From Nitrospira sp. (lineage in GTDB: Bacteria > Nitrospirota > Nitrospiria > Nitrospirales > Nitrospiraceae), in NCBI GenBank assembly GCA_024998685.1, contig JACOEH010000017.1, forward strand, positions 1 to 64,000: DNA of 64,000 bases, given 5' to 3'. Made by a program: the position numbers and the translations under genes. Within the stretch, counting starts at the first letter, position 1. Each line of letters begins with the position of its first letter. A model generated the notes under the pieces. It searched no databases, had not been told where the DNA came from, and saw only the letters and a list, made by a program, of their open reading frames with translations. This document shows, piece by piece, positions 16,633 through 17,304 of the stretch.

Positions 16633-17304
16633 ATGAAAGCGAAAGATCCACAGGACTCTGGAGACGACAAGGAAAAACAAAGTACTTCCGAGAAAACCGG
16701 ACCGTCACGGCGGCAGTTTCTCGCCCACAGCGGGCGCGTTGCAGCTGGAATCGGAGCGGCATCGCTATTGGGAAACGCCGGGCAGCATGGGATCGCGTAT
16801 GCTGCGAATGAATCGTTGATCACAAAGGTCGGTGGGGCAGGAGGAGCGAAAATGAAAAAGCATGACGCGCCACAGAGGTCGAAGGAAGCCTTAGCGGCTG
16901 CCGTGAAAGCCGAGCTGTCTGCTCCGATCGTGCCCGGTGAAATAATGACCGTGGCCGGTGATATCGAGATCTTAAAAGGACGAGAGATAAAAGACATGAC
17001 GGTCAAAAACTTGGGTGATCGACCGATTCAAGTCGGTTCTCACTGTCACTTCTTCGAAACCAATCGTGCGCTGAAGTTTGATCGTGAGCAAGCGTTCGGG
17101 TTCCGGCTCCGCATTCCTGCCGGCACGGCGGTGCGTTTTGAACCGGGAGAAGAAAAAAAGGTGACGCTCGTGGCCCTTTCGGGTAACCGGCTCGCCCAGG
17201 GTGTCAACGGGTTGACTGATGGATTGTTGGATGATCCGAAGGTCAAGGCCAAGGCTGTTTCGCTCGCTGCTGAACGCGGGTTTGGAAAAGGAGGCACACG
17301 GTGA
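16633..17304 (+). CDS. ureB: Urease subunit beta with N-terminal twin-arginine signal-like extension
   Basis: The UreB domain proper starts near residue 98 (VPGEIMTVAGDIEILKG) and has 'NLGDRPIQVGSHCHFFE' and 'FRLRIPAGTAVRFEPGEEK'. Normal UreB is about 100 residues; this product is 223. The extra N-terminus holds PSRRQFLAHSGRVAAG (RR at 26-27), a hydrophobic stretch and 'AYAAN', a textbook twin-arginine leader. From the residue before SRR it matches the UrtA leader at 18 of 27 positions, and the ribosome-binding sites (GAAAAGGAG) match too. A linker of about 40 residues joins it to UreB. ATG 16633 has the only good ribosome-binding site. The stop overlaps the ureC GTG. Export of urease, or a relic leader, are both possible. 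Confidence 0.9.
   Translation: MKAKDPQDSGDDKEKQSTSEKTGPSRRQFLAHSGRVAAGIGAASLLGNAGQHGIAYAANESLITKVGGAGGAKMKKHDAPQRSKEALAAAVKAELSAPIVPGEIMTVAGDIEILKGREIKDMTVKNLGDRPIQVGSHCHFFETNRALKFDREQAFGFRLRIPAGTAVRFEPGEEKKVTLVALSGNRLAQGVNGLTDGLLDDPKVKAKAVSLAAERGFGKGGTR

What the first reader, a model, noticed from the sequence alone, without database searches (positions are those of the whole stretch)
16633..16960. Urease beta subunit carries a twin-arginine leader copied from or shared with UrtA
Seen: UreB is 223 residues, about twice normal. Its first 60 residues contain SRRQFLAHSGRVAAG, a hydrophobic core and AYA. From the residue before SRR it is identical to the UrtA leader at 18 of 27 positions; both start with a short charged stretch and both genes have a GAAAAGGAG ribosome-binding site. 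A 40-residue linker precedes a complete UreB domain. Known: Tat exports folded, cofactor-loaded proteins and can carry subunits without a signal. Inference: a UreABC complex might be exported or membrane-tethered through UreB, although the importer beside it argues for cytoplasmic urea hydrolysis. A non-functional leader gained by local duplication is the alternative.
Basis: partly seen in the sequence, partly recalled or inferred. Interest (0 to 1): 0.85.

Follow-up and report, generated by a model that had tools for sequence, protein, structure and literature searches.

The report
Urease with a conserved export leader
A group of Nitrospira bacteria with ammonia-oxidation genes carries a urease whose beta subunit has a conserved twin-arginine export leader, likely copied from the neighbouring urea-binding protein, so part of this enzyme, so far taken to be cytoplasmic, is predicted to be exported and would release ammonia on the side of the membrane where ammonia is likely oxidised.

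Summary
ureB (16633-17304) encodes 223 residues with SRRQFL, an uncharged core and AYA, and its start resembles urtA at DNA level, ribosome-binding site included. It is no assembly accident: 22 of 79 same-genus genomes carry it (23 genes; SRR[QE]FL in 23 of 23), and the Tat core is under purifying selection comparable to the enzyme domain (dN/dS 0.037 against 0.064 in nine close genes). The carriers form one UreC clade (100/99); all 22 have at least one ammonia-oxidation gene. The other 37 ureB genomes of the genus and the 60 ureB genomes sampled outside it show no such leader. Its two glycine codons are invariant in the 16 genes that keep M74; the only other invariant glycine codon lies in ureC's Shine-Dalgarno. 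So the gene likely makes a long, Tat-targeted form and a short, cytoplasmic one; some lineages lost M74 but kept the leader. Most likely matured UreABC rides the Tat system on UreB, as nickel hydrogenases do. Export is untested, and the retained urea importer argues against complete export. Passages I read call Nitrospira urease cytoplasmic.

The parts
16617..16622 (+). Shine-Dalgarno (AAGGAG) of the long ureB start
   Evidence: Sequence; an AGGAG/AGGGG-type site stands before the long start in all 23 genes printed (AGGGG in L007; in L018 it lies before the second of two possible ATGs)
16633..17304 (+). ureB, long form, 223 aa
16705..16722 (+). SRRQFL twin-arginine motif (residues 25-30)
   Evidence: SRR[QE]FL in 23 of 23 genes; SRR[QE]F in 65 of 65 best database hits
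16633..16806 (+). Twin-arginine leader, residues 1-58; predicted cleavage after A57 (AYA), i.e. after base 16803
   Evidence: dN/dS of residues 25-58: 0.127 (23 genes), 0.037 (9 close genes); the cleavage site is inferred from the motif, no predictor was run
16839..16844 (+). Internal AGGAGG, likely Shine-Dalgarno of the short form
   Evidence: GGA GGA codons invariant in 16 of 16 genes with M74; like the start region of leader-free genes
16852..17304 (+). Likely short form of UreB from M74, 150 aa; corresponds to the ureB start of leader-free relatives
   Evidence: the database entry P0066 begins here
16933..17223 (+). Urease_beta domain (residues 101-197)
   Evidence: PF00699, 138.3 bits
10302..10475 (+). 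Leader of UrtA, likely source of the ureB leader
10302..11669 (+). urtA, urea-binding protein of the importer
   Evidence: TIGR03407, 571 bits
11818..16047 (+). ORFs of the importer taken as urtB, urtC, urtD, urtE (names by position and look)
   Evidence: ORFs; relatives compared
16189..16491 (+). ureA (gamma subunit), no leader
17301..19025 (+). ureC (alpha subunit), no leader
19111..21522 (+). Accessory genes ureF, ureG, ureD

Best explanation
In one clade of Nitrospira with ammonia-oxidation genes the urease beta subunit carries a conserved twin-arginine leader, likely copied from urtA, that is predicted to take matured UreABC through the Tat translocon, while the older start codon kept inside the gene likely makes a second, cytoplasmic form. 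Shown: the leader, its conservation and selection, the single UreC clade, the internal AGGAGG and ATG and the invariance of their codons, and the retained accessory and importer genes. Inferred: UreDFG load nickel in the cytoplasm; the enzyme (probably one UreABC unit, before any larger oligomer forms) hitchhikes on the UreB leader, as the large subunit of nickel-iron hydrogenases rides on the leader of the small one (recalled). Signal peptidase would cut after A57 and release urease into the periplasm, where its ammonia is near the ammonia monooxygenase. The short form would serve urea brought in by UrtABCDE.
For: Leader in 22 of 79 genomes; SRR[QE]FL in 23 of 23 genes and SRR[QE]F in 65 of 65 best database hits. 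dN/dS of the Tat core 0.037 against 0.064 for the domain in nine close genes, 0.127 against 0.060 in all 23. Core stretch without D, E or K in 65 of 65; residues before the predicted cut fit signal peptidase (AYA, SFA, VFA, VYA and the like) in 63 of 65, with AYT and AHG the exceptions. The Tat model TIGR01409 matches 19 of 22 genes scanned at E up to 1, best 0.0024. Two TatC genes in the genome. One UreC clade, 100/99. UreB and UreC, and less so UreA, diverged where importer and UreG did not. Internal start: invariant GGA GGA codons in 16 of 16 and likeness to the leader-free start, GGAGG in 17 of 19 leader-free rows. All 22 carriers have at least one of AmoA, HAO, AmoB, AmoC. Urea hydrolysis has been seen in cultures of Ca. 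N. nitrosa and Ca. N. nitrificans (PMC5596200, passages), and UW-LDO-01, which that paper affiliates with Ca. N. nitrosa, has the leader (L044).
Against: No export or fractionation data. The window's leader scores 13.2 bits against TIGR01409's cut-off of 16.7. UrtA is retained: a match of 269 aa or more in 18 of 22 carriers, contig-edge fragments in 3, none in 1; a fully exported urease would leave imported urea unused. Five genomes (G005, G032, G036, G075, G076) have one ureB, with leader and without M74, so there the cytoplasmic pool would have to come from incomplete export. The match to H. pylori urease includes the C-terminal extension, so a very large oligomer is possible (recalled for H. 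pylori), too big for Tat once formed. Leader-free ureB is also common in genomes with ammonia-oxidation genes: 28 of 37 have AmoA or HAO. The AmoA tree does not group the carriers.
Confidence: 0.55

Rival explanations
1. Membrane docking: the leader is made and recognised by the Tat receptor, but the urease complex is held at the inner face of the membrane, next to the importer, and urea is hydrolysed as it enters.
For: The importer is kept in nearly all carriers; selection on the leader would be the same; a large complex may not pass Tat.
Against: The residues before the predicted cut are conserved as a cleavage site, which a tether does not need; docking at Tat without transport is not a known steady state (recalled).
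Confidence: 0.2
2. The N-terminal tail has a purely cytoplasmic role, for example in assembly or regulation of urease, and its likeness to a Tat leader reflects only its origin.
For: All leader-free Nitrospira UreB N-termini printed also carry some N-terminal tail before the PGEI/PGQI-type start of the domain, so tails are tolerated here.
Against: What is kept is the Tat pattern (RR, F-L, uncharged core, small residues at the cut), while the n-region drifts (dN/dS 0.436 in 23 genes).
Confidence: 0.1
3. UreB alone, or a small fraction of it, is exported and the active enzyme is cytoplasmic, made with the short form.
For: A leaderless short form is likely made.
Against: Lineages without M74 keep the leader as the only evident start; free UreB has no known function (recalled).
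Confidence: 0.07
4. Non-functional leader gained by local duplication, with real translation from M74 only.
For: The duplication is evident; some database entries start at M74.
Against: Purifying selection on the amino acids, open frame in 23 of 23, a conserved ribosome-binding site, no leader-free row inside the UreC clade, and loss of M74 in 7 of 23 genes.
Confidence: 0.05

Closest known systems
Nitrospira urease UreABC with UreDFG and UrtABCDE (groups 1a and 1b of PMC12342949)
   Same: Same gene order, same family; clade A comammox UreC belongs to group 1a there (section 18 read)
   Different: That paper calls the enzyme cytoplasmic; the passages and section I saw mention no leader. Leader-free Nitrospira ureB starts at the codon that corresponds to M74
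Twin-arginine leader of UrtA
   Same: DNA-level likeness over the leader and ribosome-binding site
   Different: There it precedes a binding protein; here it precedes one subunit of a nickel enzyme with leaderless partners
Nickel-iron hydrogenases exported by Tat hitchhiking (recalled)
   Same: Nickel put in by a CobW/HypB/UreG-type GTPase (PF02492), leader on the subunit without nickel
   Different: Not a urease; co-export of UreA and UreC is untested
Helicobacter pylori urease (1e9y)
   Same: Best sequence match among solved structures, E 1.4e-34, including a C-terminal extension
   Different: Gamma and beta subunits are one chain there; the match starts at residue 92, so the leader is not part of it

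Membership tests
Urease beta subunit | Urease_beta domain over curated cut-offs | tested here: met
   PF00699 138.3 bits (cut-off 25), TIGR00192 142.6 (cut-off 90.3)
Urease beta subunit | Encoded with gamma and alpha subunits and accessory genes | tested here: met
   ureA, ureC, ureF, ureG, ureD identified; no ureE among the genes tested
Functional urease | Catalytic motifs in UreC | tested here: met
   All six motif strings occur in the window's UreC; their catalytic roles are recalled. The strings were read off the window, so presence there is by construction; they are kept in 17-22 of 22 leader rows
Twin-arginine signal peptide | S-R-R-x-F-L motif | tested here: met
   23 of 23 genes
Twin-arginine signal peptide | Uncharged hydrophobic core and small residues before the cut | tested here: met
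   No D, E or K in the core stretch in 65 of 65; small residues at -3 and -1 in 63 of 65
Twin-arginine signal peptide | Score over the curated cut-off of TIGR01409 | tested here: inconclusive
   Window 13.2 bits, cut-off 16.7; 19 of 22 genes match at E up to 1, best 0.0024
Twin-arginine signal peptide | Call by a dedicated predictor (SignalP, TatP) | not testable with these tools
   No such program was available
Tat substrate | Tat machinery in the genome | tested here: met
   Two TatC genes over the cut-off; TatA and TatB were not searched
Tat substrate | RR- and TatC-dependent export | not testable with these tools
   Needs an experiment
Tat hitchhiker nickel enzyme | Leader on one subunit only | tested here: met
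   UreA and UreC translations start directly with their Pfam domains at residue 1
Tat hitchhiker nickel enzyme | Partner subunits co-exported | not testable with these tools
   Needs fractionation
Gene with two in-frame starts | Second start with its own Shine-Dalgarno, conserved beyond coding need | tested here: met
   Invariant GGA GGA in 16 of 16 genes with M74; not universal, M74 is absent in 7 of 23 genes

The most novel reading that the evidence does not exclude
Clade A comammox Nitrospira run an exported urease: by copying the UrtA leader in front of ureB and keeping the old start, one gene feeds two pools, a cytoplasmic urease for imported urea and a Tat-exported urease that makes ammonia beside the ammonia monooxygenase.
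Probability: 0.42. Interest if true: 0.92.

Novelty: new variant of a known kind. Interest (0 to 1): 0.82.

Why it matters
[quoted passage not shown] In ammonia-oxidising bacteria HAO is periplasmic and AMO membrane-associated (PMC6311188, passage), and clade A comammox uses Rh-type instead of Amt-type ammonium transporters (same paper, passage). A periplasmic urease would hand ammonia to AMO without ATP-driven urea import and without ammonia having to leave the cytoplasm. It would change models of urea-fed nitrification, and it is a traceable case of export gained by leader duplication with the old start retained. It also shows that some database entries begin at M74 and omit the leader.

Tried and rejected
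Assembly or strain oddity: rejected, 22 of 79 genomes. Non-functional leader: disfavoured. Loss of the importer in leader carriers, which would have favoured full export: not found. Strict link to ammonia oxidation: only one way round. All 22 carriers have at least one ammonia-oxidation gene, but 28 of 37 leader-free ureB genomes have AmoA or HAO too (AmoB and AmoC were searched in five genomes only). AmoA tree (42 of the 49 genomes with AmoA): carriers scattered, 6 changes; contrary evidence, not used to name clades. HAO tree: a first run had three rows translated on the wrong strand; one search replaces it. Change of UreC to suit the periplasm (charge, cysteines): no clear signal, net charge -15.0 against -16.2 and Cys 6.4 against 5.5 in the first 500 residues. 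AlphaFold model of UreB: mean pLDDT 53.7, too weak, so no fold search was made. A leader elsewhere in the phylum: two hits that seemed to reach upstream (G337, G186) are ordinary leader-free UreB. N-termini of all 37 leader-free genomes of the genus were read: 25. A loose [ST]RR.F pattern upstream of one of these 12 (G042) is in another frame and looks like chance.

Full report
WHAT IS THERE. ureB lies at 16633-17304 (+) between ureA (16189-16491) and ureC (17301-19025), behind urtA and four further importer ORFs (10302-16047) and before ureF, ureG and ureD. The protein has 223 residues: a charged n-region (1-24), SRRQFL (25-30), an uncharged core, A55-Y56-A57, a linker, and a complete Urease_beta domain (101-197) with a C-terminal extension. 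Its best match among solved structures is Helicobacter pylori urease (1e9y, E 1.4e-34, query 92-218).

ORIGIN OF THE LEADER. The likeness to urtA is at DNA level and covers the ribosome-binding site. In the window it runs from 28 bases before the urtA start (29 before the ureB start) to about 140 bases after (score 52; maximum 29 of 300 base shuffles, 30 of 200). Ten loci were tried and both genes were recognised in seven. Scores exceeded all 200 shuffles in all seven, clearly in six and marginally in one (L043, 31 against 28); the aligned stretch included bases upstream of the start in six of seven. Searching with UreB also finds UrtA leaders in many genomes whose UreB has none, so urtA is the likely donor; the direction is inferred from this distribution.

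DISTRIBUTION. Of 79 same-genus genomes, 59 have a ureB by my reading (one more weak partial hit, G022, was not counted). Twenty-two carry the leader, with 23 genes because G072 has two. The N-termini of the other 37 were read and have no such leader. Of 395 genomes drawn from the phylum, 101 have a hit, 41 of them in this genus; among the 60 outside it no hit begins before residue 23, and the two that reach furthest upstream proved leader-free. In a protein database the best 65 hits (clusters at 90% identity) all carry SRR[QE]F; only the best 120 of 7058 hits were listed.

SELECTION. Nei-Gojobori counts by my own script, pooled over all pairs of 23 genes: dN/dS n-region (2-24) 0.436, Tat core (25-58) 0.127, 59-73 0.142, linker (74-98) 0.086, domain (99-223) 0.060. 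Some dS values exceed 1, so these are partly saturated. In nine close genes: 0.200, 0.037, 0.135, 0.047, 0.064; in 59-73, which holds the internal AGGAGG, dS is only 0.139 against 0.41-0.52 elsewhere. Frame 0 of the leader is open in 23 of 23, the two other frames of the strand in 0 and 8. The three residues before the predicted cut are AYA 25, SFA 12, VFA 6, VYA 5, AFA 4, AHA 4, VHA 3, TYA 2, and AYT, ASA, LFA, AHG once each, of 65. The leader is thus translated and kept for its protein sequence.

THE SECOND START. In leader-free relatives ureB starts at an ATG followed within a codon or two by lysine codons, behind an AGGAGG-type site; 17 of the 19 leader-free rows printed have GGAGG (my reading; the script stopped after 20 of 22 rows, the twentieth being an orphan copy that also has it). 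In the window the same arrangement stands inside the long frame: AGGAGG 16839-16844, ATG 16852 (M74). Sixteen of 23 genes keep M74. Of the 24 glycines invariant in those 16, three have an invariant codon: G70 and G71, which form the internal AGGAGG, and G220, which lies in the Shine-Dalgarno of ureC. Over all invariant degenerate residues, 7 of 86 have an invariant codon: V66, G70, G71, L194, A206, G220, R223. The old start therefore looks used. Seven of 23 genes have lost M74: six have CAG or CAA there, with the second glycine codon changed too, and one has a deletion. In the protein list 19 of 65 clusters lack it. All of these keep the leader.

CLADE. In a UreC tree of 54 rows (22 leader-bearing, 23 leader-free of the genus, 9 named loci; L019 dropped because its best match was short) the leader rows form one group, support 100/99, stem 0.10, one change of label. 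Against leader-free G015 and G006 the window's UrtA (93-96%), UrtE (93%) and UreG (96-97%) are as similar as against the distant leader carriers G005 and BO4 (UrtA 92-93%, UrtE 91-93%, UreG 92-96%), but UreB (68-69 against 87-88%) and UreC (84 against 93-94%) are not; UreA is in between (86-87 against 88-94%). So the enzyme itself changed along with the leader, by fast change or replacement of ureABC. In an HAO tree of 42 rows (of 52 genomes with a match) all 18 leader rows lie in one fork of 23 rows (93/87) that also holds three leader-free ureB genomes and two without ureB. The AmoA tree scatters the carriers (6 changes), which I cannot explain beyond gene transfer or binning. Carriers with documented names include LK70 (clade A; PMC7078480, passages), RBC069 and RBC093 (clade A), RBC044 (ammonia-oxidation genes) and RBC100 (named among comammox MAGs) (PMC7305129, passages), and UW-LDO-01 (PMC5596200, passages). 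AmoA or HAO was found in 20 of 22 carriers. The window's genome G000 has AmoB at a contig edge and two AmoC, and G053 has AmoC, so all 22 have at least one such gene. LK70, reported with AmoA, shows none in this assembly (G021), so absence from a draft genome means little.

MECHANISM. Shown: leader, selection, internal start, complete urease genes with accessory genes, two TatC genes. Inferred: UreDFG mature the enzyme in the cytoplasm; the UreB leader takes a UreABC unit through Tat; cleavage after A57; a short form stays inside. This accounts for the selected leader, the kept old start and the kept importer in lineages with M74. It accounts less well for the five genomes with a single ureB that has no M74 (G005, G032, G036, G075, G076), where incomplete export would have to supply a cytoplasmic pool. 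UrtA is kept in 18 of 22 carriers (match of 269 aa or more), as contig-edge fragments in three, and not found in G077. Rivals: docking at the membrane (0.20), a cytoplasmic role of the tail (0.10), export of UreB without the enzyme (0.07), relic (0.05).

LITERATURE. Searches: Nitrospira + urease + twin-arginine (3 papers; passages read in one, where Tat refers to NxrA; the other two seen in the listing only); comammox + urease + periplasm (42 papers, 30 listed; passages read in some); 'periplasmic urease' (none); urease + Tat signal peptide (11 papers, listing only); Nitrospira + urease + UreB + signal peptide (none); a six-term search on location (9 papers); urease + twin-arginine translocation + hitchhik (none); Nitrospira + Tat signal + urease (one, listing only). 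None showed this leader, but most papers were seen only as listings or passages, subscription journals are mostly missing, and no supplementary files were read. One 2026 paper proposes, by analogy with Helicobacter, that urease and carbonic anhydrase make a periplasmic buffer in an acid-tolerant comammox species; the passages I saw name no leader (PMC13109103).

VERDICT. Real, selected, clade-specific, and not met in the searches made; export is likely but untested.

Noticed in passing
L111 5392-5934 (-), L110 7898-8338 (+), L112 264-746 (+): Three leader-bearing genomes (G031, G007, G073) also have a leaderless orphan ureB with no ureA or ureC match in the fetched stretch. In G031 and G007 it lies near a deoxyhypusine-synthase-like gene, in G073 next to a pyruvoyl-type arginine decarboxylase (Pfam of the G031 and G073 neighbours). 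It might supply cytoplasmic UreB.
   Followed up: partly
ureC 17301-19025, about residue 324: CHNL in 21 of 22 leader-bearing UreC but 0 of 19 leader-free ones; a fixed H-to-N change at this place, next to a catalytic histidine by recalled urease numbering. 14 fixed differences in all.
   Followed up: no
window genome G000: C75 137-1276, C97 31182-31913, C12 43691-44416: AmoB at a contig edge and two AmoC, but no AmoA or HAO found: probably a comammox genome with an incompletely assembled amo-hao cluster.
   Followed up: partly
L037, L047: Records titled 'uncultured Nitrosospira sp.' hold leader-bearing ureB at 83% and 75% identity; contig lengths agree with G072, which the tool places in this genus. 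The title is probably wrong.
   Followed up: no
window 11818-13401: The ORF taken as urtB is 527 aa with an extra N-terminal part before the membrane region, and is the least conserved importer ORF among leader carriers (77-80%).
   Followed up: no
window 16633-17304: Database entries for this gene and for relatives start at M74 (150 aa), so part of public annotation lacks the leader.
   Followed up: partly
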